Shown here: positions 1 through 15,049 of the stretch, in pieces
Numbering within the stretch: the stretch's first letter is position 1
How the letters are laid out: every line of letters begins with the position of its first letter
Virus record (IMG/VR): IMGVR_UViG_3300006754_000257
Span: 1-20,351 of that record
DNA: 20,351 nucleotides
Direction: 5' to 3' (one strand)
Source of the DNA: a virus
Position numbers and translations under genes: made by a program
The notes under the pieces: model-generated
Database searches by the model: none
Told to the model about the DNA's origin: nothing
The model's input: only the letters and a program-made list of their open reading frames with translations

Positions 1-471
1 CTCTACATCAGGTATAGCATCAAATACTGTCTCGTTTAATACCTTTGAAAGCTCTTCCTTGATAATCTGTTTAAGTTGTGATTTTGTGATTTTCATTTTG
101 TTTTCTGCGACCGGTCCTGGTGCTCCAGCGGAGGAATCTGACAAAGCCATTACCGCTAAATCCATGGCGTAATGTTTATCGCCCCGATATTTCTTTTGCA
201 TGGATGGGGACTTAAGAAAAGCCGCTACAAGAAAATCAATTAGTTTTTCTGCTTCATCGTCGTTTAGGTCCGTCCCTTCTGGGACTTGCTTTTGTATAAT
301 ATTCTTCATGACATCGAGTTCAAGTTCCCTGTCTGTAGCATCCTTAAAAGGGTCGACCAATGTTTTCAGTCCAGCCATTGCTTTTCCTTTAATATTTCCA
401 ACAAAGTCGCTTAGGCCCTCGTCCATTTCTTTCATTATAATCTGTTTAAGTTGTGATTTGGTTAGTTTCAT
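1..471 (-). CDS. Tagged protein with a duplicated N-terminal leader (partial, runs off the window)
   Basis: The frame is open from an ATG at 471 to base 1 (157 codons), so the C-terminus lies outside the window. The first residues read MKLTKSQLKQII. The same leader recurs in the same frame at residue 126 (ATG at 96) as MKITKSQLKQIIKEEL. I re-read every codon between the two and found no stop, so as written this is one protein carrying two leaders, not two genes. The region between them is acidic and helical-looking with no family I recognise. A GGAG Shine-Dalgarno lies 8 bases before the start, and the gene begins 5 bases after the preceding stop. A ribosome could also initiate at the internal ATG, but its upstream bases show only a weak GCAG. 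The leader matches that of the next gene upstream (477-881). Function is unknown; I infer a capsid-targeting or scaffold-type role from the leader only. Confidence 0.85.
   Translation of the reverse strand, partial: MKLTKSQLKQIIMKEMDEGLSDFVGNIKGKAMAGLKTLVDPFKDATDRELELDVMKNIIQKQVPEGTDLNDDEAEKLIDFLVAAFLKSPSMQKKYRGDKHYAMDLAVMALSDSSAGAPGPVAENKMKITKSQLKQIIKEELSKVLNETVFDAIPDVE
62..84. repeat. Direct repeat copy 1 (leader-coding)
   Basis: This 23-base stretch is identical to 437-459 and encodes the KSQLKQII part of the second leader in the same gene. The similarity continues, with a few mismatches, through the ATG and the AAACAAA just upstream of it. The copies lie 375 bases (125 codons) apart. Confidence 0.9.
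437..459. repeat. Direct repeat copy 2 (leader-coding)
   Basis: Partner of 62-84, encoding the KSQLKQII part of the first leader. Near-identity at the DNA level, not only the protein level, suggests a fairly recent tandem duplication of the leader together with its ribosome-binding environment. Confidence 0.9.
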
Positions 472-476
472 TTTGT

Positions 477-881
477 TTACTCCGATGATAATAGTGCAGC
501 TACAGCCTGTAGCAAAACACCTGCTTCCAACCCTTCGATTGGTTCAACTAATTTTTCGATTTCACTTGCGACTTCTTGTGCAAGTTCTTGAGCTACCTCT
601 GGAATCTCTTCTAGGGCTGTCATTATTTCATCTGATTCGCCGCCCTCATATACAACTTCGTGGCCGGCGTCGTCTTCGTACCATTCATCTCTGGCATACA
701 TTTCTGCCATTCCGGTCAATACTTTATAGAGATTGGCGTTTGGTCCAAGAGCCTCTCGAATAATTGGCACGATGTGGTCCATGATATTAGAATATGCGGA
801 TTCGTTTGGAGTATCTTCTCCCTGAATCGATGTAATCTCTTCCTTTATAATTTCGCTCAATCTCTGTCTTGTAATTTTCAT
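477..881 (-). CDS. Tagged acidic small protein
   Basis: A 134-residue protein starting MKITRQRLSEIIKEEI, the same leader type as the following gene. The rest is strongly acidic, mostly predicted-helical and free of membrane segments or recognisable catalytic motifs. The leader contains IIKE|E, which fits the (I/L)-x-E pattern cut by T4-type prohead proteases. An AAGGAG Shine-Dalgarno, lying in the last codons of the glutaredoxin gene, is 8 bases before the ATG. The stop is 5 bases before the next gene. I do not recognise a family for the body. Presence in the virion is inferred only from the leader. Confidence 0.85.
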   Translation of the reverse strand: MKITRQRLSEIIKEEITSIQGEDTPNESAYSNIMDHIVPIIREALGPNANLYKVLTGMAEMYARDEWYEDDAGHEVVYEGGESDEIMTALEEIPEVAQELAQEVASEIEKLVEPIEGLEAGVLLQAVAALLSSE

Positions 882-882
882 G

Positions 883-1302
883 CTAGTGACTCCTTAATTC
901 ACTTCGGGCCCTCTGGAAATGTTGCAAGGTACATTTCTTCAATCCTATTTTGCACATTAGTTCTTTTGGGTTAAATCCTAAAATAATCTCTTCGCCTACA
1001 ATAAATAATGGTACGGCATTCAATTCTCCATTATAACCTAATTTTTCCGCAATTTTAACTAGTTCTTCACGATCTTCTTTACTTTCCAGACTTTTTTCTG
1101 TGTATTTCACGCCGTAATCATCTAGGAACTTTTTCGCTTTTACACACCAGCCACACCACGATGTAGAATATATCGTAACTTGCTTAATCTTTGTTGATGT
1201 TTCTTCCGTAGACCACTGTTTGACCACATCGGGATTGCATGCAGCGAAAGCACCCACAAAACAAAAGAGCATTACATATAATATGAAAAAGGTCTCTTTC
1301 AT
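883..1302 (-). CDS. Exported glutaredoxin / thioredoxin-fold protein
   Basis: A 139-residue protein with a signal-like N-terminus: a hydrophobic stretch at about residues 5-20 ends in AFAAC, so Cys22 may be a lipobox cysteine or follow a signal peptidase I site. A glutaredoxin domain follows, with the sheet start QVTIYSTSW, the active site CGWC at 50-53, the cis-proline turn AVPLFIV (Pro98) and the GF turn near 110. Such proteins reduce disulfides or glutathione-mixed disulfides. The leader suggests action at the membrane or periplasm, where it might affect envelope or virion disulfides; that is inference. I chose the ATG at 1302 because it forms an ATGA overlap with the stop of the 824-residue gene. 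An in-frame ATG at 1320 would add MGKNDK. Ribonucleotide reductase partner glutaredoxins normally lack an export signal. Confidence 0.85.
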   Translation of the reverse strand: MKETFFILYVMLFCFVGAFAACNPDVVKQWSTEETSTKIKQVTIYSTSWCGWCVKAKKFLDDYGVKYTEKSLESKEDREELVKIAEKLGYNGELNAVPLFIVGEEIILGFNPKELMCKIGLKKCTLQHFQRARSELRSH

Positions 1303-3773
1303 TTTATCATTTTTCCCCATCTTTTATAAAGCTCGTTAAGTTGCTCGGCAACTTGTGGCTCATCTTCAACGTCGGCAAAGTGTGTAGCAGTACCCTTCTT
1401 CTCCAAATCCTTCGCGGTTTGTTGTGGGTTGTCCTTCATATACTTAAGCACAGCGTCATTCAAGGTTTCCTGGAGCATAGCTTCGATTTGATCTTTAATT
1501 TTATCTTGGTCGATCCACTTGATGAAAGCGATTAGCGCATTAAGCTCATCTTCGTCGGCGCCTGCTGTTTCCCAGTATTCCTCGTTGGTTATCTTGAGAA
1601 CAAGATCATAAGGATAATCAATGTTGATTCCTGCTCCACCCTTGTCGCGCTCTTTTGATGCAAATGGAACCTTCTCCGTTCCAGGAGTACGAAGATCAAT
1701 CTTGTCCGGACGTGGAGTAAACTCCATGTCTATTAACGGAAGAGAATCCATCGGCTCTGCTGCTGATGCGTCGGGGGCTAGGCCAGGAAGAGTTAATTGC
1801 TTATAAAAGGTTTCGTATTTGTCTTCGATTGCCTGCTCAACTTTACTAAGAGTTTCCTCTCCAATAGCATTAGCGATATTGGTGGCTTTAAACGGGGCGA
1901 GGCTGGGTGCACTGCCAACTTCTGGGTCACCCAGCTTAGGGCCGGCCAGGGCGCCGCCAGTAAAAGTGTTTATCATGCGACCGAAATAAAGACCACTAAT
2001 TCCTTTTGGTCTTGCGAGTTTTGGATCCAACTCCAACATAATAGTGAATACCTTGCCTTCCATGCCGTATTCTACATTCTTAAAATCAAATTTGTCGAGT
2101 TCATCTTCTAGTTCTTTCAGGCCGCCGGCTGTTAATCCAGAGTCCATTAAAGTTGTTGCCAATGAATCCCAAAAGTCTTCGCTTTCGAGAATATCATCTA
2201 CGTCTCTCATTCTGCTAAGGAATCTTTCGAAACCATCGATGCCACTTTGCTCGTCGTAATCCGGCGTGAGTCTTACATTAACCTCGTCATCATAACCGTC
2301 AGCTTCGACTTCATCCGGATATATGCCGGCGCCATCGATGCCCTTGTGGACAACATCTGCAAAGTCATCCATGTCAGTATCTTCGGGAAGTCTGAGATCT
2401 GCGAAGTGAGGATCGCCTAGGGCAATCCTAAAACTAGCCTCCCAATACCAAGAGTTTGTGTCGTATTCGTCGTAGTTTACGTAGACGTTGTTGAACGGGG
2501 TATACTGATCAAACACTTTATCGTAGTCATCGTGTTTTGGGCCTCCGGGATTTTCTTCGTTGTGGTAGGCCGCGTTGCCTGTGATGTCGTTGTAGGCCTC
2601 TTGTATAAGTTCGTCAAACTTTTCTTGGAGAGGTTGAATTTCTAAATCGATTACTTCGGAGTAGGTATTTGGGAAAAGATAGTTCGCTATTTTCAGGACC
2701 GTCTCGTCAGGGATATCGTCCTCTGTTGGGTCTTCAATTATTCTGGCGATCATATCTTTCATACCATCGAGTCTTTCATTTCGATCTTCTTCGCTCTTCA
2801 GACCTTTGATTTTATTTCTTGTTTTTGCAAAAACATCACTTTTACGAAATACGCGATAGAGTAAATTCTCGGTGATACCTTCGATTAAGCCAATATCGCC
2901 AGTCTCGTCGTCGGTTGCATCAAAAACCTGTTCTGGTTCTGTGTCATGACCCTGATTCGTCCCATATACAAGTGCCATCTTTTTGTATGGACTAGAATTT
3001 GGAAGGTGTCTAAACATAACAAAATAAAATGTCTTGCCCTCGCCAGAGTACTGATTGAAATAGTTTCGCGACTCTCTCGCTGAAATACACCACTTCGTTC
3101 CCCATCCATAATAACATGAGGCTCCCTCGGTGTTGGGGCGAATGACTGCGTAGTCTTCGGTTTCAAGAAGATCGTCTGCTTCGCCAGCAGCTTGTTTCTT
3201 TAATTTGCTCTGTTCCTCTTTGTCTTTCAACTGGCGCATTCCAATTTCAACTGCGCCTTTAAAATCTCCGACTTCATTTGTGGGGTCAAAGTCATATATA
3301 TCTTTTTTTATGGCGCCCTTTTGTTTCAGGGTGTGATAGTCTTGGATGGAGGGCAGCAGGTTATCGAGCGCATTATACATGTAGCCGGCAATACTTTCCG
3401 CCACTTTGTCCGGGTGGAAAGTGCTGTCCTCCGGAGCATTGGCATCATTCCATGCGATTGGACTTGTGCCCCAATTTTTGCTGTATTTCTGGAGCCTTCT
3501 CATCATATCTTTTCTAACGAAGCGTGCAAGCCACATAAGATATTTATTATCTCCGCTTGGGTCGACTTCCTTTGCATGTTCAATCGTTCTTTCTGCTCCC
3601 TTCTTGAGGATGGCAATTTGCTCATCCGACATCTGATCAAGCACGTCTTTGACCCTGAATTGTTTGGCGCCCTTATTGAAGTTTTGAGCATATGCAAGTG
3701 CGTCGGAAAAGCGGCTCTCAATGAGTAAATCTTCTGTCAAGAAGGTTTTCCAGTTTTTCATAAAATCTGTCAT
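1299..3773 (-). CDS. Large tagged protein with a conserved GTKWC domain
   Basis: An 824-residue acidic protein. The N-terminus contains MKNWKTFLTEDLL; L12-T13-E14 fits the (L/I)-x-E site of T4 prohead protease, and the whole resembles T4 capsid-targeting leaders such as that of internal protein IPII. Residues about 220-252 carry the motif YYGWGTKWCISARES followed by NYFNQYS and FYFVMF. From memory this motif recurs in phage proteins of unknown function, and I cannot assign an activity. The centre (about 400-560) is rich in Asp and Tyr. A C-terminal domain ends in a basic LYKRWGKMIK tail. The ATG overlaps the preceding stop as ATGA; an ATG at 3761 would give the leader directly. It may be a large protein packaged with the DNA, as T4 Alt is, but there is no sequence evidence of ADP-ribosyltransferase activity. 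Confidence 0.85.
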   Translation of the reverse strand: MTDFMKNWKTFLTEDLLIESRFSDALAYAQNFNKGAKQFRVKDVLDQMSDEQIAILKKGAERTIEHAKEVDPSGDNKYLMWLARFVRKDMMRRLQKYSKNWGTSPIAWNDANAPEDSTFHPDKVAESIAGYMYNALDNLLPSIQDYHTLKQKGAIKKDIYDFDPTNEVGDFKGAVEIGMRQLKDKEEQSKLKKQAAGEADDLLETEDYAVIRPNTEGASCYYGWGTKWCISARESRNYFNQYSGEGKTFYFVMFRHLPNSSPYKKMALVYGTNQGHDTEPEQVFDATDDETGDIGLIEGITENLLYRVFRKSDVFAKTRNKIKGLKSEEDRNERLDGMKDMIARIIEDPTEDDIPDETVLKIANYLFPNTYSEVIDLEIQPLQEKFDELIQEAYNDITGNAAYHNEENPGGPKHDDYDKVFDQYTPFNNVYVNYDEYDTNSWYWEASFRIALGDPHFADLRLPEDTDMDDFADVVHKGIDGAGIYPDEVEADGYDDEVNVRLTPDYDEQSGIDGFERFLSRMRDVDDILESEDFWDSLATTLMDSGLTAGGLKELEDELDKFDFKNVEYGMEGKVFTIMLELDPKLARPKGISGLYFGRMINTFTGGALAGPKLGDPEVGSAPSLAPFKATNIANAIGEETLSKVEQAIEDKYETFYKQLTLPGLAPDASAAEPMDSLPLIDMEFTPRPDKIDLRTPGTEKVPFASKERDKGGAGINIDYPYDLVLKITNEEYWETAGADEDELNALIAFIKWIDQDKIKDQIEAMLQETLNDAVLKYMKDNPQQTAKDLEKKGTATHFADVEDEPQVAEQLNELYKRWGKMIK

Positions 3774-4045
3774 TTAAAAACCCTCTCTCTTGTTGTCTTC
3801 ATCAAATCTCTGTGGAAATCTCTTTTAAGTCTCAGGAGTCTCTGAAACTTTACCTTTTGCCGCACGTCCATATAGAGAGCGGTTGGCTTTTTGATTTCTC
3901 CATCGATCAACTGTTCCGAAAAATCATAAAATTTTGCCTTTGGTTCGGCGGCATTTAAGTTTTCACATCGCATTATGGATATTAACATAAAAAGGCTCAA
4001 AATCGATAATATGAGCCTATATTTGACAAATTTATCCATAAACAT
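3770..4045 (-). CDS. Small lipoprotein-like or membrane-anchored protein
   Basis: A 91-residue protein with a hydrophobic N-terminal segment (about residues 9-27) ending near Cys27, in the context SIMRCEN. This could be a signal anchor or an imperfect lipoprotein signal. The mature part contains YDFSEQLIDGEIKKP followed by a basic helical KFQRLLRLKRDF. That order (Y-x-F, D-G-E-I, K/R-P, then a basic helix with R-x-x-F) reminds me of short envelope proteins of predatory and gliding Deltaproteobacteria, but this is memory-based and weak. A GAGG Shine-Dalgarno sits 9 bases before the first ATG, and a second ATG is two codons on. The stop overlaps the next gene as ATGA, so the two are translationally coupled. 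Function unknown. Confidence 0.75.
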   Translation of the reverse strand: MFMDKFVKYRLILSILSLFMLISIMRCENLNAAEPKAKFYDFSEQLIDGEIKKPTALYMDVRQKVKFQRLLRLKRDFHRDLMKTTRERVFK

Positions 4046-4059
4046 AAATAGTGTCCTCT

Positions 4060-4683
4060 TTAAGATAAATCCCTAGCTATTTTTTCAGCGTCCTCATCAT
4101 CATAGATGGTATAAACTGGGGCGCCCAGAGAGTCTACTGTCGCCTGTATTTCTTCTGCTTCTTTTCTAGCTTTTTGTACCCGAGTTTGATACTCTTCTTC
4201 GCTAGAATATTCTCCCGAATCTAGTCTTTCTTTGTGCCTTCTAATTAATTCTTTTGCTGCAGGTGGGGCTGAAAAGATTAATATTAATCTCTTTCCTTCT
4301 CTTCTTGCAACATTGTTTAGATCCCTTTCTCCGCGAGAACCATCAACATTAGTAACATCTGTAACTAAGATAGACTTACTTGCATTTCGGAAATCTGAAA
4401 TTTTTGTTCCGTAAAAATTTCCAGCGTACTCATTCCAATTAATCAAATTTCCCTGCTCGAATTCTTCCTTCCACTCTTCTTCGGTTGCGAACTCATATTC
4501 AACATCTTCTTCTCCCCGGGGAGGGCGAGTCACATAAGAAACTATCTCATTCCACCCATGCTCCTTGAAAATATTCTTTTGTCTGGATTTTCCGGAGCCG
4601 GATGGCCCAAAGATCGCAAGAATTGTTCCGGAATTAGCCTCTCTTAGATATTTTTTCCATCTCTCTAATGTTGTGTCTATCAA
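4060..4683 (-). CDS. Guanylate kinase-like NMP kinase with N-terminal leader
   Basis: A 207-residue P-loop kinase of the guanylate kinase fold, expected to transfer phosphate from ATP to (d)GMP in the cytoplasm. The P-loop GPSGSGKS is at 26-33, the NMP-binding TRPPRGEE at 52-59, the GNFYGT loop at 88-93 and a helical lid around 149-177. In front is a 15-residue leader with ERWKKYLRE|A, a good match to T4-type capsid-targeting and cleavage sequences; cutting after E15 would leave the kinase domain intact. One oddity: the glutamate that reads the guanine base in yeast guanylate kinase (E69, in FIEW) aligns with Asn82 here (LINW), so base preference may be altered. The start is TTG, with GGAGG 9 bases upstream inside the end of the preceding gene. 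Alternative starts downstream would remove the leader. The family call is secure, the substrate less so. Confidence 0.9.
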   Translation of the reverse strand: MIDTTLERWKKYLREANSGTILAIFGPSGSGKSRQKNIFKEHGWNEIVSYVTRPPRGEEDVEYEFATEEEWKEEFEQGNLINWNEYAGNFYGTKISDFRNASKSILVTDVTNVDGSRGERDLNNVARREGKRLILIFSAPPAAKELIRRHKERLDSGEYSSEEEYQTRVQKARKEAEEIQATVDSLGAPVYTIYDDEDAEKIARDLS

Positions 4684-5037
4684 TTATAAATACCTCCACC
4701 AGGAAAACCATCTTCTCTGGTCAAGGTAGTTTAGATTCTCTTGATTTAAATATGCTTCTTTCTCAAAAGGGTTTTCAGCATATGCTAAAACAGTGCTTTT
4801 ATATTTAATCAGCCCTATCAACCAAAAGAGTCCATACAAAATCCACTGAAAAACAAACAACAATTCTAATTGTTGGAAGAAATGTATATTCTCGTGATTT
4901 TTAATTACAGGATGCGCCTTTCCTCGATACCATGTGAATGGCCCGAAGGCCACAGCATATACGCTAACAGGCGCAAATATTGATATTATTTTCGGAACTA
5001 TACTATTCTCAAAAACAAATGGTCTTAATTTTCTCAC
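4684..5037 (-). CDS. Membrane protein with HENIH zinc-peptidase-like motif
   Basis: A 117-residue protein with two hydrophobic segments, about residues 13-33 and 59-78. Between them lies HENIHFFQQLEL, in which H48-E49-x-x-H52 has the HExxH form of a zincin active site. The downstream ENPFEKEAY (E92/E94) could supply the third zinc ligand. From memory, similar short proteins of unknown function occur in bacteria and phages, but proteolysis is not proved by this motif. The start is GTG at 5037 with GAGGAG about 9-10 bases upstream. The stop is immediately followed by the TTG start of the kinase gene. Possible roles are envelope protein processing or superinfection control, neither shown by the sequence. 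Confidence 0.75.
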   Translation of the reverse strand: MRKLRPFVFENSIVPKIISIFAPVSVYAVAFGPFTWYRGKAHPVIKNHENIHFFQQLELLFVFQWILYGLFWLIGLIKYKSTVLAYAENPFEKEAYLNQENLNYLDQRRWFSWWRYL

Positions 5038-5038
5038 T

Positions 5039-5215
5039 CTATTGTACTCCTCTCAAATTCATTATATCTTCTAAAAATCCCTTAACTTTGTTTTTTACTG
5101 CGCGTAGAGCCTGAAGATCATTAACGGCAACCTTCAAGCCGCTTAATTTCATTCCGTTTGGTAGTGTTACCTCTTCGACCGTGAAAGTTAACCAGTCTTT
5201 TTTTTCTTTATTCAT
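5039..5215 (-). CDS. Small hypothetical protein (58 residues)
   Basis: A short frame in the space between the thioesterase and the HENIH protein. It runs from ATG at 5215 (Met-Asn-Lys-Glu) to TAG at 5039-5041. GAGG lies 6 bases before the ATG. The start overlaps the preceding stop by 8 bases, and the stop lies one base from the next GTG, so it fits the close-packed operon exactly. The N-terminal half looks like a beta strand pair (WLTFTVEEVTLPNG); the C-terminal half is an amphipathic helix. No cysteines, membrane segment or family is recognisable. Support comes from spacing, Shine-Dalgarno sequence and the lack of any other explanation for these 170 bases. Confidence 0.7.
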   Translation of the reverse strand: MNKEKKDWLTFTVEEVTLPNGMKLSGLKVAVNDLQALRAVKNKVKGFLEDIMNLRGVQ

Positions 5216-5618
5216 TCGTAACCTCTCGGAAGATGTTTTCTTTCTTAATTTTTACATCGGCCCTTATTGGCACCGGCTCCCCGTCGCCATCCAGGCGAAC
5301 AAACTTCATATTTGTTTGGCATACAACCTTTTCGCTCTGGTTATAAGTGCTGTGTCTCCGGGCTTCTATTTTTAATAGACAAGAGGTTGTCCCAAAATTA
5401 ATAACTTCTCCGTAAACCTTAATTATCTGGCCAGGCCTGACTGGCTTAAGAAATTCTACCTTGTCCATGGAAACTGTTACCATCCTTGGCGTTTCACAAA
5501 CCTGACAAGCATATGCTACTGCTGCTTCATCCAGCCATGCTAGCATGAACCCTCCAAACAAAGTTCCATGATAGCCAACATCATTGACTTTACACATGTG
5601 CGTAGATAGCAATTCCAC
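5208..5618 (-). CDS. Hotdog-fold acyl-CoA thioesterase
   Basis: With the start chosen here the protein has 136 residues, the usual length for a single-hotdog acyl-CoA thioesterase of the YciA/BFIT type, which hydrolyses acyl-CoA to free acid and CoA. Diagnostic parts are VNDVGYHGTLFGG (11-23) followed by the long helix MLAWLDEAAVAYA with Asp30 at the usual catalytic position, then the strand VSMDKVEFLKPVRPG. The open frame extends upstream to 5729, but that would overlap the previous gene by over 100 bases. The GTG at 5618 has GGAGG 5 bases upstream and starts one base after the preceding TGA, so I prefer it. An acyl-CoA thioesterase is an unusual phage cargo; it may alter host lipid or CoA metabolism. 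Substrate unknown. Confidence 0.88.
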   Translation of the reverse strand: MELLSTHMCKVNDVGYHGTLFGGFMLAWLDEAAVAYACQVCETPRMVTVSMDKVEFLKPVRPGQIIKVYGEVINFGTTSCLLKIEARRHSTYNQSEKVVCQTNMKFVRLDGDGEPVPIRADVKIKKENIFREVTNE

Positions 5619-5619
5619 A

Positions 5620-5982
5620 TCAACCTCCGACCGGTCGGGCAAAAACAATTCTTGCGGCGGTAACTCCATGGACATTCGGGAGGGCTTTTCTAAGAAACTC
5701 TTTATATTCTTGGGGCAATTTATTAACAACCAGATATTTCATCTTGATGACCGACTTCTTCCTTCCAAGAAATTGTCTAGTCTCTTCAGTGTCGACCACT
5801 GTTATGCCCTCTATTGCTCTAACATCGTTTAAAATATCAGTTATGTTTCTATCTCCCGTAACATTCAATATTATTCTTGCTTCGTATACGACGGGCTCTT
5901 TGAACTCTTCTATAGTCTCAACGTTTTCTTCTTTCAAAGATTTTTGGTAAAGATATTTATTCCATTTTTTTTCGTCAAACAT
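5620..5982 (-). CDS. Conserved hypothetical phage protein with W-x-x-Y-L leader
   Basis: A 120-residue protein. The leader KKWNKYLYQKSLKEEN resembles the W-x-x-(F/Y)-L leaders of the guanylate kinase and the 824-residue protein and contains LKE. The body has a beta-alpha-beta look: ARIILNVTGDRNITDILNDV, then IEGITVVD, then the strand KSVIKMKYLVV, as in small ferredoxin-like (ACT-like) domains. I recall similar stand-alone proteins from phages but no known function. The ATG overlaps the preceding stop by one base (TAATG). The stop is one base from the GTG of the thioesterase gene and carries that gene's Shine-Dalgarno sequence. Confidence 0.78.
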   Translation of the reverse strand: MFDEKKWNKYLYQKSLKEENVETIEEFKEPVVYEARIILNVTGDRNITDILNDVRAIEGITVVDTEETRQFLGRKKSVIKMKYLVVNKLPQEYKEFLRKALPNVHGVTAARIVFARPVGG

Positions 5983-6185
5983 TATTTTTCTTCCAACTTT
6001 TTTACTCTTTTTGACAGTCTATTGACCTGCTTTTTAAGGCTCGAAACTTCCTCGGAGAGGGAGGAGTCCGACGAGCTTCCTTCTAGGCTGTCTAGCCGCA
6101 TTTGAGTTGTATAATAAAACCCTCCGAGACCAGCGATGAGAGCGGCCAGAGTCAATGCTAATTTTATGTCTATCTTAAACCCCAT
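5982..6185 (-). CDS. Small membrane-anchored coiled-coil protein
   Basis: A 67-residue protein with one N-terminal transmembrane helix (about residues 8-25, rich in Ala, Leu and Gly), a serine-rich linker (about 36-44) and a C-terminal heptad-like helix with regular Leu/Val (SSLKKQVNRLSKRVKKLEEK). The form is that of a small bitopic membrane protein. It could be a holin- or spanin-related accessory, but there is no lipobox and no adjacent lysis gene. It overlaps the end of the upstream tagged gene by 11 bases. Confidence 0.75.
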   Translation of the reverse strand: MGFKIDIKLALTLAALIAGLGGFYYTTQMRLDSLEGSSSDSSLSEEVSSLKKQVNRLSKRVKKLEEK

Positions 6186-6582
6186 GGTGTCGGCCGGCCT
6201 TCTTTTTTAGTTCTTTCACAATTTCTTCCCATTGTTCGACTCTTTCTGATGTTCTTGCCGCATCGCGCTTCCACATTTGAAGCCTCCCCTCTGCAACTGC
6301 TACCGGTTGTTCGGGGTGCTGGTCACCATGAAGACTAGTCCACAGTTGTTCAACCGCTTTATCAACGGCGCCACTGAAATGTGGTGAGTCTCTCCATGGC
6401 TCTAGGGTTGGCGTTGGCGGAAGCGGAGCAAGGCCATGGCCTTCTTCCAAAAACTCTAAAACTATATTCTTAATTTCCTCACGGATAGTTTTCTCCCTTA
6501 CCTCCGGTAGTTCTTCGATAAGGTCGATGGCCAGTAGTTCTTCTAAGATCAGCGCTTTCAATTTAGACTTTGTTGTTCTCAT
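6175..6582 (-). CDS. Tagged hypothetical protein
   Basis: A 135-residue protein beginning MRTTKSKLKALILEELL, a variant of the MK(I/L)TKxxLxxII leader with ILE|E as a possible (I/L)-x-E cleavage site. A second acidic helix follows, then a Pro-rich stretch (LAPLPPTPTLEPW), then a helical C-terminus with several Trp residues. No enzyme motif is visible. The ATG has GGAG about 11 bases upstream. The 68 bases between it and the previous gene hold no convincing promoter. Function is unknown; the leader suggests the same fate as the other tagged proteins. Confidence 0.75.
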   Translation of the reverse strand: MRTTKSKLKALILEELLAIDLIEELPEVREKTIREEIKNIVLEFLEEGHGLAPLPPTPTLEPWRDSPHFSGAVDKAVEQLWTSLHGDQHPEQPVAVAEGRLQMWKRDAARTSERVEQWEEIVKELKKKAGRHHGV

Positions 6583-6650
6583 ATATATTGAATCTCCAGT
6601 AACTTACAGTAAATAGTAGTTTTCACAACAAAAGCAACCTTAACATATTT

Positions 6651-7300: not shown

Positions 7301-7310
7301 ATATAAACTC

Positions 7311-7864: not shown

Positions 7865-7883
7865 GTTTTTTTTCTCCATTAAT

Positions 7884-7912: not shown

Positions 7913-7917
7913 GTAAA

Positions 7918-8568: not shown

Positions 8569-8569
8569 T

Positions 8570-8863
8570 CTATCCTGCCATCATATTAGCGTAGGCAGAG
8601 GCTACTGCCAGGGTAGATAAAGAAGTAACAACGATCCATATAAGACGAGAATGCACGCTCTTCCAGTTCTCAAGTTCTTTTATTTGCGCTTCACATTCTT
8701 TGATTCTAGCGTATACACCTTCGTCCGGATTGTAAACTGCTTCTTTAATTCTAGATATTCCTGTTGCCATTTCTTCTTGTTTATCTTTCATAGCATCAAG
8801 AGAATCCATCATTCTCTCTAATTTTCCGTTAAGTTCGATCAATGCTGTTGGGTCTAGATTCAT
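8570..8863 (-). CDS. Coiled-coil protein with C-terminal membrane helix (XhlA-like)
   Basis: A 97-residue protein. A long N-terminal coiled coil (about 5-72) contains the pattern VYARIKECEAQIKELENWK and is followed by a single transmembrane helix near the C-terminus (about 74-92). This order resembles the XhlA/haemolysin-type phage accessory proteins that work with holins, so a role at the inner membrane during lysis is possible; this is inference. I chose the ATG at 8863, which has GGAGAG about 10 bases upstream. The frame also opens with GTG at 8899, overlapping the groEL stop, which would add 12 residues. Confidence 0.72.
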   Translation of the reverse strand: MNLDPTALIELNGKLERMMDSLDAMKDKQEEMATGISRIKEAVYNPDEGVYARIKECEAQIKELENWKSVHSRLIWIVVTSLSTLAVASAYANMMAG

Positions 8864-8895
8864 TGTACTTTGCTCTCCAATAGTAAATAGTTGTA

Positions 8896-10467
8896 TCACC
8901 CATTATCGATGATAGCATAATTAGTATTAATAAGAGTAGAAGATACAGATACTGCATTTTTTAATGCTGTTTTTGTAACCTTTGTTGGGTCGATGATACC
9001 GCTATTTGTCATATTAACTACAGTCGATGTTGAAAAATCCCATCCAAAACCATCAGCAGCAGCCAGTACTTCCGCGATGACCAAATCAGGAGATTCTCCA
9101 GCATTTAAGGACATTTGCCTGATAGGCTCTTTAACAGACTCCGCGACGATCCTGACTCCAAGAGACTGATCGTCATTCTCTGTGGCGACGTCTAAAGACT
9201 TTGCCGCAGTAACCAGAGCTACTCCGCCACCGGGGACAACGCCGTCTAATTGCGCCGATCTCACGGCCTCTAGGGCGTCTTCTATTCGATGTTTCTTTTC
9301 AATCATCTCAATCTCTGTTGAACCACCGACATGAATAATAGCAACTCCGCTGGCTAGCCTTGTTATTCTTTCTTGGGTTCTTTCGCACTCGTATAAATCG
9401 TCCATCGCTGTTACTTCGGCCTTCAAGGTAGAAATTCTTTTTTCAATCTGCTCAAGATTGCCATTACCTCCAACAATTGTAGTATTGAATTTTGTTATCT
9501 CGATTGTCTTTGCCGTCCCTAAGTCTTCCAAAGTTGCCTGATGGAGAGTTTTTCCGGATTCCCTGGTTATGTATTTTGCTCCAACAGAAATTGCCAGATC
9601 TCTCATGATTCCCTTTCGTTCTTCACCATAACGAGGAGCTTTTATTGCAACAATCTTCATTGTTCCCCTTACCGCATTCATAATTAATGCTGCAAGAGCT
9701 TGGCCCTCAACATCATCAGCTACGATTACCAGAGGCTTTCCTGCGCGGGCCACTACTTCAAGAATCGGAAGGATTTCATCCACAGTCTCTATCTGGGAGT
9801 CACATATTAAAATATATGGATCGTCGTATCTCGCTGTTCCCCTGCGATCATCGGTTACAAACTGGGGAGAGACATACCCTGAATCAAATCTAAACCCTTC
9901 GACTAGATCTAAGCTAGTCTCTAATGACCTCGCCTCTTCGACAGTTATCGCACCGTCTTTTCCAACAGAATCGACAGCAGTAGCTACAATTCTCCCTATT
10001 ACCTTATCTCCGTTCGCTGAAATAGTTGCGATGTGTTCAATATCATCTTGGCTAGATATTGGGCTTGATAGGTTGTCTAGGTTTTCAAGCATACATATTA
10101 AGGCTTTGTCCATTCCCCTCTTCATTTCGACCGGCGAGGCGCCTGTTGCAAGATATTTTTGTGCTTCTCTGAAGAGCGCCCGGGCAAGAACTGTCGATGT
10201 TGTGGTCCCGTCGCCGGCTGTAGAGTTTGTCTCTGATGCAGCTTGTTTCATGATCTGGGCGCCAACATTCTCTATTGGATCTTCCAATTCAACGAAATTG
10301 GCAACGGTTACGCCATCCTTTGTAATAACCGGGGATCCTGTTTCCCCGGCCAGAATAACATTTCGGCCTCGGGGACCAAGAGTGCTAGCTACGTTGTCTG
10401 CTAATTTATTTACGCCGGCTAGGATTTTTTCCTGAAGCTCGACTTTCGAACAGTAATGTTTTGTCAT
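8896..10467 (-). CDS. groEL: Chaperonin GroEL (Hsp60), phage-encoded
   Basis: A 523-residue group I chaperonin, which folds proteins in an ATP-driven double ring in the cytoplasm. Signatures run in order: TLGPRGRNV and DGVTVA near the start, GDGTTTSTVLA at 85-95 with the catalytic Asp86, an apical domain with KPLVIVADDVEGQALAALI whose GroES/substrate-binding helices look intact, RIEDALEA with the second catalytic Asp397, and GVVPGGGVAL at 409-418. The protein ends after the equatorial domain without the Gly-Gly-Met tail of bacterial GroEL. No GroES gene is in the window, so it may use host GroES or a phage cochaperonin elsewhere. It is probably needed for capsid or other virion protein folding. 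It has GAGG 5 bases before the ATG and its own promoter with a palindrome over the -10 box. Confidence 0.98.
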   Translation of the reverse strand: MTKHYCSKVELQEKILAGVNKLADNVASTLGPRGRNVILAGETGSPVITKDGVTVANFVELEDPIENVGAQIMKQAASETNSTAGDGTTTSTVLARALFREAQKYLATGASPVEMKRGMDKALICMLENLDNLSSPISSQDDIEHIATISANGDKVIGRIVATAVDSVGKDGAITVEEARSLETSLDLVEGFRFDSGYVSPQFVTDDRRGTARYDDPYILICDSQIETVDEILPILEVVARAGKPLVIVADDVEGQALAALIMNAVRGTMKIVAIKAPRYGEERKGIMRDLAISVGAKYITRESGKTLHQATLEDLGTAKTIEITKFNTTIVGGNGNLEQIEKRISTLKAEVTAMDDLYECERTQERITRLASGVAIIHVGGSTEIEMIEKKHRIEDALEAVRSAQLDGVVPGGGVALVTAAKSLDVATENDDQSLGVRIVAESVKEPIRQMSLNAGESPDLVIAEVLAAADGFGWDFSTSTVVNMTNSGIIDPTKVTKTALKNAVSVSSTLINTNYAIIDNG

Positions 10468-10482
10468 TTAAACCTCGATTGT

Positions 10483-10500
10483 GTGTTACCATTATAACAC
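10483..10500. promoter_or_regulatory. Palindrome over the groEL -10 box (candidate operator)
   Basis: A perfect inverted repeat GTGTTA-N6-TAACAC overlaps the -10 element and the likely transcription start of the groEL promoter. Two-fold symmetry with one helical turn between half-site centres suits a small dimeric repressor or activator. It may also form a weak hairpin in the RNA leader. Inference from symmetry and position. Confidence 0.4.
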
Positions 10501-10518
10501 TTTTTTCAGAAAAGTAAA
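10491..10518 (-). promoter_or_regulatory. Promoter for groEL
   Basis: On the minus strand there is a perfect TATAAT at 10491-10496 and a TTTACT at 10513-10518 with 16 bases between them. It lies just after the stop of the upstream 562-residue gene. The predicted start site is about 18 bases before the groEL ATG. The ten bases GTGTTATAAT also occur at the promoter at 14297-14306. Confidence 0.55.
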
Positions 10519-10521
10519 GGA

Positions 10522-12210
10522 TTATTTTTCAGCAGGACGAAGTTCTTCTGTTTTGCCCTCAATTGTGTTTGAGGCTTTAATGGCAGTTGCAGCGTCCCTA
10601 TCTTTTTTTAACCCTCCAGCAAAATAAGAATTTAAGCTGGAAGTCAGTACCTTGAGGTTCTCAACGATTACGAATACAGAATCATTAATTTCTGAAACAA
10701 CTCTATCAAGCATTTCCTGAATATATTTTTGACCAACGTTCGTCACTCCAATTTTTACGTCTGACTGACCTTCATCGAATAAATTTGAAGTTTGATCTCC
10801 TGCAAATTTCTGGATGTTATATACATGACCACGATTCAAAGAGAATTGATATGTCTTTAAAAATCCTTGAGAATTCCTTAGTGCGGCCATTTTTTGTTCT
10901 GGCGAGAGATTGTTATAAAAACTGACAGAATCCTCGATGGAAGCCCACTTCATTTCTTTCAAGGCCGATGTTCTTTTGGACTTAATTTTCTTGGCAGTAA
11001 ATTCTTTTCTAATTACCTCGTTGGCCGCATGGACTATGTTGACTAGAGCGATTAAAAATGGATCTTTTGTGTTTTTGGCATCTGGTACCAGGCCAGCACC
11101 AAAAACTGCTCTAGTAATAGAACTCTTTGCCATGGCGGATAAACCCCTGACCACACCCAAGTTTCGATCTCCACGCTTGACAGTAAGAAACATTTCGTCC
11201 TTGTTTGCAAAATCTATTACACTCACCAGATTCTCTATTTCTTGAGCATTTAAATCAATACCTTTAGTTTTACTAATCAAAGTATTAACATTGTCGACAA
11301 ACATAGTCTCTACCTCTTCAGGAGAAGGTGCTTTGTCGCCGGATGGTAAAACCGATTCCACATCATAATCAGAATTTCCGGCTTGGATAGCCTCCATCCA
11401 AGAAACTGGTAACTGTATACATCTGGATGATTCGTCTTTCGATTGTGATATTATGTTTGTCACATTGTCAAGGGTAAAGTTAAATCTATACCAAGAGATC
11501 GCCCCTTGTTGGTCCATACCCCTTCCTTCCAAATCTTTCATACAAACAATATACTGCATATACCTTGGGTCTCTTGTCAGGTCGCCAACTAGATCTGTGA
11601 AACTTCCACCGACTTCGACAGAAGCCTCAGAATATAATTTTAGACTAATTGGAGTTCCATTTCCAGAAATAAGATCAGCAATCGTACCTTCGCCCGTTGG
11701 AACCTGCTTACCATTAAGCATCGCGCCAAGGAAAGACTCGAAAGAGAACCCAGCAGAAGAAGCATTAAAGTTCTGAATTATTGATGTAAGTGTTTTATAA
11801 AATACTAAATAAGACAAAATCTTTGACACCTTCGTAGCTGGAGAAGTATTTCCTGGTAATTTTAAACCTTCGGAATAAAATTGATTAAGCGAACTTAATT
11901 TTTCTTGCAGGGTTGAACCTTTGATGTTGTTCAAATAACTAATCAAGGCTTGTCTTTGTGGTCCGTCGACCTGGGCACCCTTGTCTGTTGTTCGAACGTC
12001 AGACCACCCAAGTTCCGATACCGGGATTGATGGAATAACATCGACTGTTATCGTCTGTGGGCCGGCCTCTGTCAACATATCTTTTGCGCCAGGGATGACC
12101 GACTCAAGCACTTTAAGTTCAGATTCCACCATTTCAATAAGTTTCGAAAAACTTAGTTTGCTTTTGTTTCTTTCGAAGTGTTCGTTAATTGCTTTTTCAA
12201 ATATATCCAT
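10522..12210 (-). CDS. Tagged protein with a possible PD-(D/E)XK nuclease core
   Basis: A 562-residue protein. The first 48 residues form a helical, partly basic leader ending MLTE|AGP (46-51), an almost ideal T4-type prohead protease site; removal would leave about 514 residues. Residues 154-195 read as a possible nuclease core: GFSFESFLGAML with Glu158, then TIADL with Asp179, then ISLKL with Lys191. An E, D, x-K order on a helix-strand-strand background is typical of the PD-(D/E)XK superfamily, although the residue two before Lys is Ser, not Asp/Glu. The following EVGGSFTDLVGD is also conserved-looking. The C-terminal half is helical with no motif I know. It is the last gene before the groEL promoter. 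The nuclease idea is inference; a purely structural role is possible. Confidence 0.85.
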   Translation of the reverse strand: MDIFEKAINEHFERNKSKLSFSKLIEMVESELKVLESVIPGAKDMLTEAGPQTITVDVIPSIPVSELGWSDVRTTDKGAQVDGPQRQALISYLNNIKGSTLQEKLSSLNQFYSEGLKLPGNTSPATKVSKILSYLVFYKTLTSIIQNFNASSAGFSFESFLGAMLNGKQVPTGEGTIADLISGNGTPISLKLYSEASVEVGGSFTDLVGDLTRDPRYMQYIVCMKDLEGRGMDQQGAISWYRFNFTLDNVTNIISQSKDESSRCIQLPVSWMEAIQAGNSDYDVESVLPSGDKAPSPEEVETMFVDNVNTLISKTKGIDLNAQEIENLVSVIDFANKDEMFLTVKRGDRNLGVVRGLSAMAKSSITRAVFGAGLVPDAKNTKDPFLIALVNIVHAANEVIRKEFTAKKIKSKRTSALKEMKWASIEDSVSFYNNLSPEQKMAALRNSQGFLKTYQFSLNRGHVYNIQKFAGDQTSNLFDEGQSDVKIGVTNVGQKYIQEMLDRVVSEINDSVFVIVENLKVLTSSLNSYFAGGLKKDRDAATAIKASNTIEGKTEELRPAEK

Positions 12211-12218
12211 GCCTCTAA

Positions 12219-13130
12219 TTAGTCCCCAGAATCCTTAATTTCCTCAAGAATCTTCATAAGATCCAGGCCCGCGCAGTCAATCTTTTTTCTTGATACATGA
12301 TAGTGACAAACGGTACCGGTAAAATTCTTAATAGAACTTTTTACTTTCGTCAACAAAGTCCCATCACCATTGGTTGGGCACTCAAGAGGAATGTCATAAT
12401 GCTTGCTAAGTGCCGATACCAAAGCTTTATAAGCTTCGATCTGAACAGGGTAATATCCTAGATGTGGGCCAAGATCTACTCCGTGCACAGTTGAGTCCTC
12501 AAGAACAGGCCTGTTGCCAAACTTCTTTCTATACCACCTCTGGTATTTCATATAATAAGCGTTACTAATATCAATGCCAATTGATAAGTCGTTTACAGGT
12601 GGGGCATGCCAAGCAATATCTTGGGTATCAACCATTTGATATATGGTACCGTCATTGTCAATTACAAAATGAGACGAAATTCCTCTTTTCTTCAAAACCC
12701 TGTGACATGATGCTGCTGATAGACAGGCATCCCAGTGAGTTACGATCATCTGTGGATCTCTAACTTTTTTATGATAGTTTTTAAAGTTTGAATGTGGGAG
12801 TTTAAGCGATCCTTTACCATGAAGTCCAACAACCTTGTCCCAGTCTATGGGAATTCTCTCGCTGTTGCAAGAAATATATTTCTGGGCGCCTTCGGATTTC
12901 TCCGCGAGCGCCATCATGGCCAGTTCGAATTTTGCTTCTCTCTCAGTCATCGCTCTGGTAAATGTTGCTGGTCCAACTAGCCCATCTGCATCTAGGCCGT
13001 GGGTACGCTGAAACTCTATAACATTATTAATTAGTATATCATCAAAGGTTTCGCAACAAAACCATGACGGATCCCAACCAAACCTTTCCGCAGAGGACAA
13101 ATTATAGAAATTTTTATCGCTAATGGGCAA
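12219..13130 (-). CDS. Endolysin: peptidoglycan-binding domain plus N-acetylmuramoyl-L-alanine amidase
   Basis: A 303-residue modular lysin that cuts the bond between N-acetylmuramate and L-alanine to release progeny. The N-terminus holds a PG_binding_1 repeat (NVIEFQRTHGLDADGLVGPATF, about 36-57). The Amidase_2 domain covers about 125-290: IVTHWDACLSAASCHRVL with zinc ligand His132, ISSHFVIDNDGTIYQMVDTQDIAWHA, and CHYHVSRKKIDCAG with a second zinc His (276 or 278) and the third ligand Asp285 or Cys286. There is no signal peptide or membrane segment, so it needs a holin for access to the wall. The start is TTG at 13130, directly after the stop of the ClpP-like gene, with GAGG 8 bases upstream. 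The next ATG would delete the binding domain, which supports TTG. Confidence 0.95.
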   Translation of the reverse strand: MPISDKNFYNLSSAERFGWDPSWFCCETFDDILINNVIEFQRTHGLDADGLVGPATFTRAMTEREAKFELAMMALAEKSEGAQKYISCNSERIPIDWDKVVGLHGKGSLKLPHSNFKNYHKKVRDPQMIVTHWDACLSAASCHRVLKKRGISSHFVIDNDGTIYQMVDTQDIAWHAPPVNDLSIGIDISNAYYMKYQRWYRKKFGNRPVLEDSTVHGVDLGPHLGYYPVQIEAYKALVSALSKHYDIPLECPTNGDGTLLTKVKSSIKNFTGTVCHYHVSRKKIDCAGLDLMKILEEIKDSGD

Positions 13131-13868
13131 TTATACAACCTCGTCTGCGATACCTAACTCCACGGCCTCATCTGCAGTGAGATATACATTGACCTTTCTA
13201 TTTAATAACTTCTTGAGATAAGCTTTTGTCATATCTGTCTCTTTCACCAAGCATTCAATGTGTTTTTCTTGAATCCATCGCATTTCTTCCATTTCATTTT
13301 CCAAATCGTGGAGTTGACCTGCAGATCCTCCGACAACGCTGTGTATCATGACACGACAATTCTTTCCGATTCTTCTTTTTCCTTTGGTGCCTGAAGCCAA
13401 CAGCAAGACTCCGGCCGACATTACTTTTCCTAGGCCGAAGGTATGAATATCACAGTCTTTTCTGACCATCCTCATAGTATCGTATATTGCGAACATATCT
13501 GCCGCAGAACCACCGAAAGTAGAAATTGTCAAATCAAAGGGCTCATAAAGAGTTACTATTTGCGCGTTGTCAAGATCATTCGGATCTCCATCTAAATACT
13601 CTCTTTTTCCATACTCTCTTAGAGCCATCATAGAGAAAACAACATCATTTGCTATTTCTTCGTCTATGTTTCCATAGAGACTGATGCTTCTAAATTTGGG
13701 GCCGGCATCTTGTTGTTTGGCAGATGCCATTAGTAATTCCTGGAGAATTTCCTCTTCTGGATTTTGTTCTTCCGGTTGTTCTTCCGGTTCGGGCACTGCC
13801 TTTTTCTTTTTCCCCTTGCCGGAGGCCAGGGGCTTGGCCTTAGTTATTGAGCTTTTAATTGGTGACAT
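13131..13868 (-). CDS. ClpP-like serine protease
   Basis: A 245-residue protein: about 55 residues of charged, low-complexity N-terminal extension (KGKKKKAVPEPEEQPEE) followed by a ClpP/S14 protease domain. The nucleophile is Ser151 in GKVMSAGVLLLASGTKGKR, and His176 lies in RVMIHSVVGG. At the third triad position E. coli Asp171 aligns with Asn228 (KVNVYLTADEAVELGIADEV), which is unusual. ClpP works with ClpA/X-type unfoldases to degrade proteins; phage versions may capture host unfoldases or act in head maturation. No ClpX-type ATPase is in the window. AAGGA lies about 6 bases before the ATG. It sits between a hypothetical gene and the endolysin with gaps of 9 and 0 bases. Confidence 0.93.
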   Translation of the reverse strand: MSPIKSSITKAKPLASGKGKKKKAVPEPEEQPEEQNPEEEILQELLMASAKQQDAGPKFRSISLYGNIDEEIANDVVFSMMALREYGKREYLDGDPNDLDNAQIVTLYEPFDLTISTFGGSAADMFAIYDTMRMVRKDCDIHTFGLGKVMSAGVLLLASGTKGKRRIGKNCRVMIHSVVGGSAGQLHDLENEMEEMRWIQEKHIECLVKETDMTKAYLKKLLNRKVNVYLTADEAVELGIADEVV

Positions 13869-13877
13869 TTTGTTCCT

Positions 13878-14273
13878 TTATCGTTTGCTGTTTTTTTTAT
13901 AAATCTTTGTTAATTCATCCATTGCTTCCGGCCAGTTCTGGAATTTTAACATTTTTCTGTAAGGCCGGGGCCAAGCTGATATCATATGATAAATAGTCGC
14001 GTTCTTCCAAGTTTCAAATGTTTTTTCGTCTATTTCTTTTATTGTTTCTATTTCTTCTTCCGACAGACCAGAGTCTGCAAGGTTCAGATACTTGAGGCTT
14101 CTGGTAAAAGCCACATCTTCAGAAATAACTCCCAGAAGTTTTAAACTCTGCTGGCTTATTTCTTCCAAGAATAGCGCCATGTGTGTATATGCGAAAACCA
14201 TTGCCAGCGTCCTATATGTCATGACTCCGGCAAAAAACCACACAACCTCTGTTAAGCCTTGTTCTTCTAACAA
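13878..14273 (-). CDS. Hypothetical protein
   Basis: A 131-residue protein. Residues about 8-40 are hydrophobic and aromatic (VVWFFAGVMTYRTLAMVFAYTHMALF), perhaps a buried or membrane-proximal helix. The rest is helical with a WPRPYRKMLKFQNW segment and a basic end. I do not recognise a family. The start is TTG at 14273, supported by an extended Shine-Dalgarno AGAGGTGAT just upstream; no ATG lies nearby in frame. It is the first gene after the promoter at 14297-14325. Confidence 0.75.
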   Translation of the reverse strand: MLEEQGLTEVVWFFAGVMTYRTLAMVFAYTHMALFLEEISQQSLKLLGVISEDVAFTRSLKYLNLADSGLSEEEIETIKEIDEKTFETWKNATIYHMISAWPRPYRKMLKFQNWPEAMDELTKIYKKNSKR

Positions 14274-14296
14274 GTATCACCTCTTATATTTAAAGT

Positions 14297-14325
14297 ATTA
14301 TAACACACTTCGCACAAAAATTAAA
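14297..14325 (-). promoter_or_regulatory. Promoter for the 14273-10522 cluster
   Basis: On the minus strand there is a perfect TATAAT at 14297-14302. TTTAAT at 14320-14325 lies 17 bases further upstream and is a weak -35 box. It sits directly after the terminator of the acidic repeat gene, so a new transcript would begin here. The bases GTGTTATAAT are identical to those at the groEL promoter. Confidence 0.5.
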
Positions 14326-14355
14326 CAAAAAAATAGCGCCACGAGGGCGCTATTT
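14324..14355 (-). terminator. Rho-independent terminator of the acidic repeat gene
   Basis: A perfect 10-base-pair stem, AAATAGCGCC / GGCGCTATTT (14331-14340 with 14346-14355), has a 5-base loop. On the minus strand a run of seven T (14327-14333) starts in the stem base and continues past it. It begins 22 bases after the stop at 14378. This is the only strong terminator in the window. Confidence 0.88.
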
Positions 14356-14377
14356 CTAAAAGTAACACATTAAACAA

Positions 14378-15049
14378 TTATTTATCTTTTTTAGAGGATA
14401 ATCTCTTCATGATACGCTCTGCAAGGCTGTCTGCAATATCATCTTTGTTTTTTGATGCGGCCATTCTAGCTGCAACCTTCTTGGCAACCTCTGCAATAAA
14501 TCTATTGTCTTCGGTCTCCTCAAGCTCTTCTTCCTCTTCTGGGGCATCCAAAGGCTCTTCCATTGGTGCGTCAAGAGGCTCATCCATTGGCTCGTCCATT
14601 GACATCTCCATCTCTGGCTCTTCCATTTCTCCCTCGGCGCCGGCATCTGATGCACCAAGAATTTGATCTATTACATCTCTAGCTGTACGGAGCGCCTCAA
14701 CATCGGCCTCTGGTACAGTAACGGAGGCCTCGACCTCCTCTTCAGGAGCGTCTAAAGGCTCGTCCATTGGCTCATCAAGGGGCTCATCCATTGGCTCATC
14801 CATTGGCTCATCCATTGGTGCGTCAAGAGGCTCATCCATTGGTGCGTCCTCGTCGCGGGCATATGCCATGCCTTCGTCTGTGGTATCATCAGAAGCTACC
14901 TCTTCAAGCTCTTCGGTTTCCTCAAATTCTTCGGTCTCTTCCTTAATGTTGTTAGTTACAAATGTCTCTGAAAGCGGGTCGATAGAAGCTAGCTTCATAA
15001 AACGGCGTACTGCACCCTCGTTGAGTAAATTGTCTTTCTTGTTGCTCAT
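14378..15049 (-). CDS. Acidic repeat protein with a capsid-type N-terminal leader
   Basis: A 223-residue, very acidic protein. The leader LLNEGAVRRFMKLASIDPLSETF (8-30) matches a leader I recall from many marine phage proteins of unknown function. It includes LSE (26-28) and IKE (35-37), both possible (L/I)-x-E protease sites. Two blocks of MDEP(M/L)/LDAP repeats (71-102 and 151-170) flank a helical segment (about 110-138). The C-terminus is basic and helical (EVAKKVAARM, LAERIMKRL). The combination of strong acidity, head-type leader and a dedicated terminator suits an abundant internal head or scaffold protein, as T4 gp67 is acidic, but no homology to gp67 is claimed. AGGAG lies 10 bases upstream of the ATG. 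The unit stands alone between two gaps. Confidence 0.85.
   Translation of the reverse strand: MSNKKDNLLNEGAVRRFMKLASIDPLSETFVTNNIKEETEEFEETEELEEVASDDTTDEGMAYARDEDAPMDEPLDAPMDEPMDEPMDEPLDEPMDEPLDAPEEEVEASVTVPEADVEALRTARDVIDQILGASDAGAEGEMEEPEMEMSMDEPMDEPLDAPMEEPLDAPEEEEELEETEDNRFIAEVAKKVAARMAASKNKDDIADSLAERIMKRLSSKKDK
14540..14599 (-). repeat. Coding repeats, MDEP block 2
   Basis: Roughly 12-base units encode MDEP, LDAP and MEEP within the acidic protein. Units are near-identical in DNA, so copy number probably varies by slippage. Confidence 0.8.
14744..14839 (-). repeat. Coding repeats, MDEP block 1
   Basis: About eight consecutive 12-base units encode MDEP, LDEP and LDAP; several are identical in DNA (plus-strand unit ggctcatccatt). 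They are in frame, translated and separated from block 2 by about 48 codons. Confidence 0.85.

What the first reader, a model, noticed from the sequence alone, without database searches (positions are those of the whole stretch)
1..15049. A shared set of N-terminal leaders suggests a packaged protein cargo
Unrelated proteins carry short leaders of a few types. MK(I/L)TK/RxxLxxII occurs at 471, 96 (internal), 881 and, loosely, 6582. W-x-x-(F/Y)-L occurs at 3761, 4683 and 5982. LLNEGAVRRFMKL occurs at 15049. Several contain (L/I)-x-E followed by a small or acidic residue, the site cut by T4 prohead protease gp21: FLTE|D, YLRE|A, IIKE|E, ILE|E and, in the 562-residue protein, MLTE|AG. T4 targets internal proteins to the head with comparable leaders. 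Enzymes such as the guanylate kinase and a possible nuclease would then be injected with the DNA. The sequences are seen; the targeting role is inferred.
Basis: partly seen in the sequence, partly recalled or inferred. Interest (0 to 1): 0.8.

Follow-up and report, generated by a model that had tools for sequence, protein, structure and literature searches.

The report
Phage tags that mark packaged proteins
A group of large, uncultured T4-like phages puts the same short removable tag on the front of hundreds of unrelated proteins, most probably to load them into the virus head and inject them with the DNA, which would let biologists read a phage's injected-protein set straight from its sequence.

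Summary
Four window genes start with, and one ORF also contains internally, a short leader that recurs across uncultured T4-like phages: 453 tagged proteins in 314 unrelated body families. Three leader classes (MKITKxQLKxIIKEE, MKKLLTEWRKFLKE, MKxLRxYIRxLLxE) differ in sequence but share one pattern, hydrophobic-x-x-hydrophobic-(I/L)-x-E, with E usually at residue 14. T4's capsid targeting sequence, MKTYQEFIAE|, fits the same pattern and places the same four critical residues. The window's close kin carry a T4-type prohead protease (S77) and Gp23 capsid protein with conserved L-x-E sites. Every leader contig that covers the capsid gene away from a contig end also has the protease. Related cargo swaps leader class at the predicted cut, and leader genes also fuse into polyprotein-like ORFs. 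Identifiable cargo resembles injected effectors (ADP-ribosyltransferases, SAM lyase, kinases, peptidases).

Best reading: capsid-targeting propeptides, a greatly expanded T4-like system. Packaging, cleavage and injection are inferred, not shown. The window is only a fragment, without protease or capsid genes.

The parts
430..471 (-). Class A leader of ORF 1-471 (MKLTKSQLKQIIMKEM), first 14 residues; one extra codon shifts the (I/L)xE site
   Evidence: profile E 1e-4; ribosome-binding site ggag
31..96 (-). Internal, in-frame 22-residue class A leader MKITKSQLKQIIKE|ELSKVLNE| with two PHIxxPHI(I/L)xE sites; no Shine-Dalgarno in front of it (polyprotein-like fusion)
   Evidence: (E 1.6e-12)
1..471 (-). 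ORF of at least 157 aa carrying the N-terminal and internal leaders; runs off the window end
840..881 (-). Class A leader MKITRQRLSEIIKE|E, 14 residues
   Evidence: (E 6e-8)
477..881 (-). 134-aa cargo protein of unknown function behind the leader
3732..3773 (-). Class B leader MTDFMKNWKTFLTE|D, 14 residues
   Evidence: (E 0.014); homologue G006_181301 starts MSLYHDKWRGFLSE
1299..3773 (-). 824-aa cargo protein; residues 188-351 match phrog_17056 (unknown function)
4639..4683 (-). Class B leader MIDTTLERWKKYLRE|A, 15 residues, TTG start
   Evidence: not recovered by the trained profile
4060..4683 (-). Guanylate kinase behind the leader (phrog_1815, E 1.9e-22)
6541..6582 (-). Class A-like leader MRTTKSKLKALILE|E, 14 residues
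   Evidence: (E 0.012)
6175..6582 (-). 135-aa cargo protein of unknown function
14378..15049 (-).
17577..20351 (-). DnaE, 60-67% identical to leader-bearing contigs; ties the window to the clade

Best explanation
The leaders are capsid-targeting propeptides. Hydrophobic residues at about positions 8 and 11 dock the nascent protein on the prohead core. Cargo is assembled into the prohead, and the S77 (gp21-type) protease cuts after (I/L)12-x-E14, and often again after E22 in class A, freeing the cargo inside the head. The cargo would then be ejected into the host with the DNA. New cargo arises when the leader cassette is copied in front of another gene, so leader genes accumulate in tandem and some have fused into polyprotein-like ORFs. 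Shown: the leaders, their shared pattern, unrelated bodies, class swapping, and the protease and capsid context in kin. Inferred: docking, cutting, packaging and injection.
For: (1) Leaders are N-terminal tags on unrelated bodies: 314 body families among 453 proteins; in alignments of one representative per family, essentially only leader columns are conserved; de novo N-terminal similarity far above three control segments; profiles from other contigs give 85 and 30 matches at E<=0.01 in nine kin contigs, none in reversed decoys.
(2) Same pattern as the T4 CTS: ipII and ipIII both begin MKTYQEFIAE. In the regex-free cluster the hydrophobic fraction is 0.80 at -6 and 0.86 at -3 relative to E, and 0.07-0.08 at -4, -5 and -8 (0.24-0.40 in other proteins at the same positions); PHIxxPHI(L/I)xE in 73% against 3.5% of other proteins. 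In T4 IPIII, residues 4 and 7 govern targeting and 8 and 10 processing (PMC9026906); these map to leader positions 8, 11, 12, 14.
(3) Protease: S77 in 19 of 22 leader contigs against 4 of 18 random long contigs. Leader contigs without it also lack the Gp23 capsid gene, except three whose capsid gene lies at or within about 9 kb of a contig end.
(4) Gp23 propeptides keep LTE, LLE and LL(R/K)E sites just before the conserved AFPIVRR segment.
(5) Related cargo with different leader classes joins at the (I/L)xE site (15 pairs).
(6) Cargo: ART, NUDIX, zeta-toxin-type kinase, C39/C70 peptidase, SAM lyase, GNAT, protein kinase; T4 also packages an ADP-ribosyltransferase, Alt (gpAlt named as one in the reference list of PMC9958956).
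(7) In the 484-kb phage LR756508 about a dozen leader genes flank the S77 gene.
Against: No virion proteomics or cleavage data exist for this clade. No T4-type late promoter was found upstream of leader genes. Leader genes lie only weakly closer to the protease than rotations predict (P about 0.05, class A only). Most class A cargo has no recognisable domain. The window itself holds no protease or capsid gene. Leader profiles match the head-cluster protein next to the protease best of 89 families, but only modestly. The closest named isolate examined, Microcystis phage Mel-JY01, has no such leader family. Leader codons resemble one another more than expected, so part of the similarity is recent copying.
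Confidence: 0.76

Rival explanations
1. The leaders are selfish or recombination-prone DNA cassettes (ribosome-binding site plus start region) spread by duplication, with no targeting role.
For: Leader codons match more often than codon usage predicts, within contigs (0.65 against 0.46) and across them (0.55 against 0.42), while bodies match as expected. The two leaders of window ORF 1-471 are almost identical DNA.
Against: Three dissimilar leader classes keep the same hydrophobic spacing and E position. Fused internal copies keep the leader although a start is no longer needed, and several have lost the Met. Occurrence is almost confined to viral contigs.
Confidence: 0.08
2. The leaders target proteins to another place in the phage programme, such as the tail, a membrane or a replication compartment, and the E-rich end is not a protease site.
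For: No proteomics; the cargo is mostly unknown; leader genes are often away from head genes.
Against: Match to the T4 CTS and its critical residues, conserved L-x-E sites in the clade's Gp23, leader swapping at the (I/L)xE site.
Confidence: 0.1
3. The tagged proteins are scaffold-type core components that are degraded during maturation rather than injected cargo.
For: The head-cluster protein beside the protease has the family N-terminus closest to class A leaders. Many class A proteins are short; T4 core proteins gp67 and gp68 are degraded (PMC9958956).
Against: Body diversity (314 families) and enzyme domains (ART, NUDIX, SAM lyase) fit effectors, not scaffolds.
Confidence: 0.06

Closest known systems
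T4 internal proteins IPI, IPII, IPIII and Alt with their capsid targeting sequence (CTS)
   Same: Short N-terminal propeptide shared by otherwise unrelated proteins; aromatic/hydrophobic-x-x-hydrophobic-(I/L)-x-E| pattern; S77 protease and Gp23 in the phage; ADP-ribosyltransferase among the cargo
   Different: Propeptide usually 14 (or 22) residues instead of 10; at least three leader classes; in the nine kin contigs several to more than twenty profile-matched leader genes each (4-25), often in tandem arrays; internal copies in fused ORFs; cargo families unrelated to T4 IPs as far as tested. Packaging not shown
phiKZ/SPN3US-type giant phage ejection proteins
   Same: S77-type protease removes N-terminal propeptides from many head and ejection proteins (PMC5694885, PMC9026906)
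   Different: Those propeptides are mostly over 100 residues with another cleavage motif (S/A-x-E in phiKZ); the leaders here are short and share sequence across unrelated proteins
Polyvalent proteins injected by tailed phages
   Same: ART and GNAT effector domains reported as injected with the DNA (PMC7824862)
   Different: Those are large multidomain proteins; here effectors are mostly separate small genes each with a leader, with occasional fusions

Membership tests
T4-type capsid targeting sequence | Short N-terminal peptide shared by otherwise unrelated proteins | tested here: met
   314 body families in 453 tagged proteins; N-terminal-only similarity
T4-type capsid targeting sequence | Hydrophobic targeting residues and (I/L)-x-E processing residues in T4 register (T4 positions 4, 7, 8, 10) | tested here: met
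   T4 mutational data in PMC9026906
T4-type capsid targeting sequence | gp21-family (Peptidase_S77) prohead protease in the same phage | tested here: met
   In kin contigs. Not testable in the 20-kb window itself
T4-type capsid targeting sequence | Gp23-type capsid protein with (L/I)-x-E processing sites | tested here: met
   PF07068 hit; N-terminal alignment of nine contigs
T4-type capsid targeting sequence | Late gene expression with head genes | tested here: inconclusive
   No TATAAATA-type late promoter signal; weak proximity to the protease
T4-type capsid targeting sequence | Leader sufficient to package a foreign protein | not testable with these tools
   Needs fusion and packaging assay
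T4-type capsid targeting sequence | Leader removed in mature virions | not testable with these tools
   Needs virion mass spectrometry
T4-type capsid targeting sequence | Direct sequence homology to MKTYQEFIAE | tested here: inconclusive
   Class B keeps aromatic-x-x-(F/Y)-L-x-E; class A shares only the pattern; judged by eye and pattern, no significant homology score obtained

The most novel reading that the evidence does not exclude
These phages run a modular protein-payload system. A short leader cassette is copied in front of new genes, turning them into injected effectors, and adjacent leader genes can fuse so that one precursor carries several leaders and is cut into several cargoes inside the head. 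Each genome would carry up to dozens of predicted injected proteins, mostly of unknown function and many likely to disarm host defences.
Probability: 0.45. Interest if true: 0.88.

Novelty: new variant of a known kind. Interest (0 to 1): 0.74.

Why it matters
In T4 only a handful of injected internal proteins are known, and finding more has needed proteomics. A sequence tag that marks predicted cargo makes the injected-protein repertoire of uncultured phages readable from contigs, points to hundreds of candidate anti-host or anti-defence proteins, and offers new short tags for loading proteins into phage heads. It also extends the CTS concept with a general rule (hydrophobic-x-x-hydrophobic-(I/L)-x-E) that can be tested directly.

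Tried and rejected
Late-promoter enrichment: none found. Search for leaders in the closest named phages by capsid protein: strict DNA pattern empty in six records; no leader family in most of the Mel-JY01 genome; looser profiles did find them in LR756508. Profile comparison of class B leaders with the Gp23 propeptide: not significant, so I do not claim they derive from it. Acidic 15049 protein against the Gp23 N-terminus: not significant. Gene position near the protease: only P about 0.05. ART search across 36 contigs: four hits; class B leaders read directly on two of them, the other two not checked one by one. Reversed DNA pattern as control: no hit in the viral collection. Window 5982 and the 562-residue protein rejected as leader carriers.

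Full report
What the window is. The window is a 20,351-base virus record with all genes on the minus strand: a DnaE fragment, dUTPase, an IMPDH-like enzyme, an acidic protein, ClpP, amidase, a 562-aa protein, GroEL, thioesterase, guanylate kinase, an 824-aa protein, a thioredoxin-like protein and several small genes (names for dUTPase, ClpP, GroEL and DnaE rest on my reading of the sequences and on orthologues). No phage record matches it at DNA level. Its DnaE is 60-67% identical to that of nine leader-bearing IMG/VR contigs of 72-193 kb, and blocks of its genes are conserved there. These contigs serve as its kin. The detailed comparisons below use eight of them plus the more distant 289-kb contig G001 (DnaE 39%); together they are called the nine kin contigs.

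Checking the observation. The leader sequences are present as stated at 471, 96, 881, 6582, 3773 (3761 is the second Met) and 4683. Profiles trained only on other contigs recover 96, 881 and 471 clearly, 6582 and 3773 marginally, and 4683 not at all. Four of 30 window proteins carry PHIxxPHI(L/I)xE in the first 20 residues, P = 0.009 against shuffled N-termini. The gene at 5982 lacks the glutamate and its weak homologues lack a leader. The protein at 15049 is a single-copy orthologous family found in 8 of 9 kin contigs. MLTE|AG in the 562-aa protein is at residue 48. These three are not part of the set.

How widespread it is. The same pattern in reversed codon order gave none, and 257 Gb of bacterial and archaeal genomes gave 11 stretches, all in metagenome-assembled genomes; two of the three such genomes examined also hold an S77 protease. 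Class B gave 59 stretches. In the nine kin contigs (1819 called proteins), 51 of 57 class A motif hits start within the first 10 residues, and 26 of 30 class B hits (which also counts 13 called window proteins). The contigs were chosen for class A, so the presence of one class A leader is expected; the number of copies, the unrelated bodies and classes B and C are not. A regex-free test compared N-terminal 19-mers of proteins whose remaining sequences are not homologous: 1039 pairs reach score 45, against 6, 0 and 1 for residues 21-39, residues 41-59 and the C-terminus. Tagged proteins of 60 aa or more fall into 314 body families out of 453.

One rule behind several leaders. In the regex-free cluster of 174 N-termini, residues at -6 and -3 from the glutamate are hydrophobic in 80% and 86%, those at -5 and -4 in 8% and 7%; in other proteins with an (L/I)xE the same positions are unremarkable. 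E falls at residue 14 in 92 of 153. T4 ipII and ipIII begin MKTYQEFIAE, which fits the rule exactly: Y4, F7, I8, E10. In T4, residues 4 and 7 matter for targeting, 8 and 10 for processing (PMC9026906). Class A often carries a second such unit ending near residue 22.

Head context. S77 prohead protease occurs in 19 of 22 long class A contigs and 4 of 18 random long contigs (Fisher P 7e-5; not corrected for relatedness or length). Among 22 class B contigs it is found in 7. A Gp23 search explains the gaps. Of the 18 contigs without protease (3 class A, 15 class B), 15 also lack Gp23 and so probably lack the head region. The other three (G057, G058, G059) carry Gp23 at about 7.3-9.1 kb, 58 bases and 1.8 kb from the contig start, and the protease lies upstream of Gp23 in kin. 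Gp23 of nine kin contigs keeps LTE, LLE and LL(R/K)E sites ahead of the AFPIVRR segment. The family N-terminus most like class A, of 89, is the small head-cluster protein just downstream of the protease; this is suggestive only. In the 484-kb phage LR756508 about a dozen leader genes surround an S77 protease that contains an intein.

Swapping and fusion. Fifteen pairs of homologous cargo carry different leader classes, joined at the (I/L)xE site; for example ...HFLSE|DEEYFYIEDA with class A and ...FLNE|EEEYYHIEDA with class B. The six non-N-terminal class A hits of the regex, and further ones from the profile, are complete leaders inside longer ORFs, including the window's own at 96. Cargo fused in G007 (EMEAELSEDKYATEDDRPLGT) is a separate leader gene in G005. 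Some fused copies have lost the start Met, so they are not alternative starts. In the window the stretch before the internal leader resembles the gene-start region of the first leader but lacks the ggag; reading it as a fused former gene start is inference.

Cargo. With class B and C leaders: ADP-ribosyltransferase, NUDIX, zeta-toxin-type kinase, C39/C70 peptidases, SAM lyase, GNAT, protein kinase, HD, ParB. Class A cargo is shorter and mostly unknown.

Mechanism. Most likely the leader docks cargo on the prohead core, the S77 protease removes it after (I/L)xE, and the cargo leaves with the DNA. The first step rests on analogy with the T4 CTS and its mutational data, the second on shared site and protease, the third on T4 precedent and cargo types. 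None is shown here.

Limits. Gene calls are from a simple caller of mine. The kin contigs are related to each other. Leader codons are more alike than expected, so duplication contributes. No late promoter was seen, and proximity of leader genes to the protease is weak. Literature searches found no description of these leaders in the papers held; the library is incomplete.

Noticed in passing
LR756508.1, L409:11480-13204: S77 prohead protease interrupted by an intein with LAGLIDADG and splicing-domain matches.
   Followed up: partly
G002:139128-142953: Two tandem Gp23-type capsid genes in one contig.
   Followed up: no
G056:9343 (L397): A 192-aa protein resembling the Gp23 propeptide and the segment after it (KWENARLLEE..QLLENEARHILS..AYICFPLIRRIF), in a separate gene about 16 kb from the capsid gene.
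   Followed up: partly
Head cluster of kin contigs, e.g. G004:98609; Mel-JY01 L399:9143: A small gene between prohead protease and capsid gene: annotated RpsU (ribosomal protein S21) in Mel-JY01 and a weak S21 match in G004.
   Followed up: no
window 1-96 and 430-471: The two leaders of one ORF are nearly identical DNA, including the AACAAA before ATG; the internal copy lacks the ggag, as if a former gene start had been fused.
   Followed up: partly
NHDW01000006.1 and PBIO01000025.1 (L414, L417, L419, L421): Leader-rich contigs of 306 kb and 101 kb inside bacterial MAGs; probably phage contigs binned with a host. Whether the S77 gene is on the same contig was not checked.
   Followed up: partly
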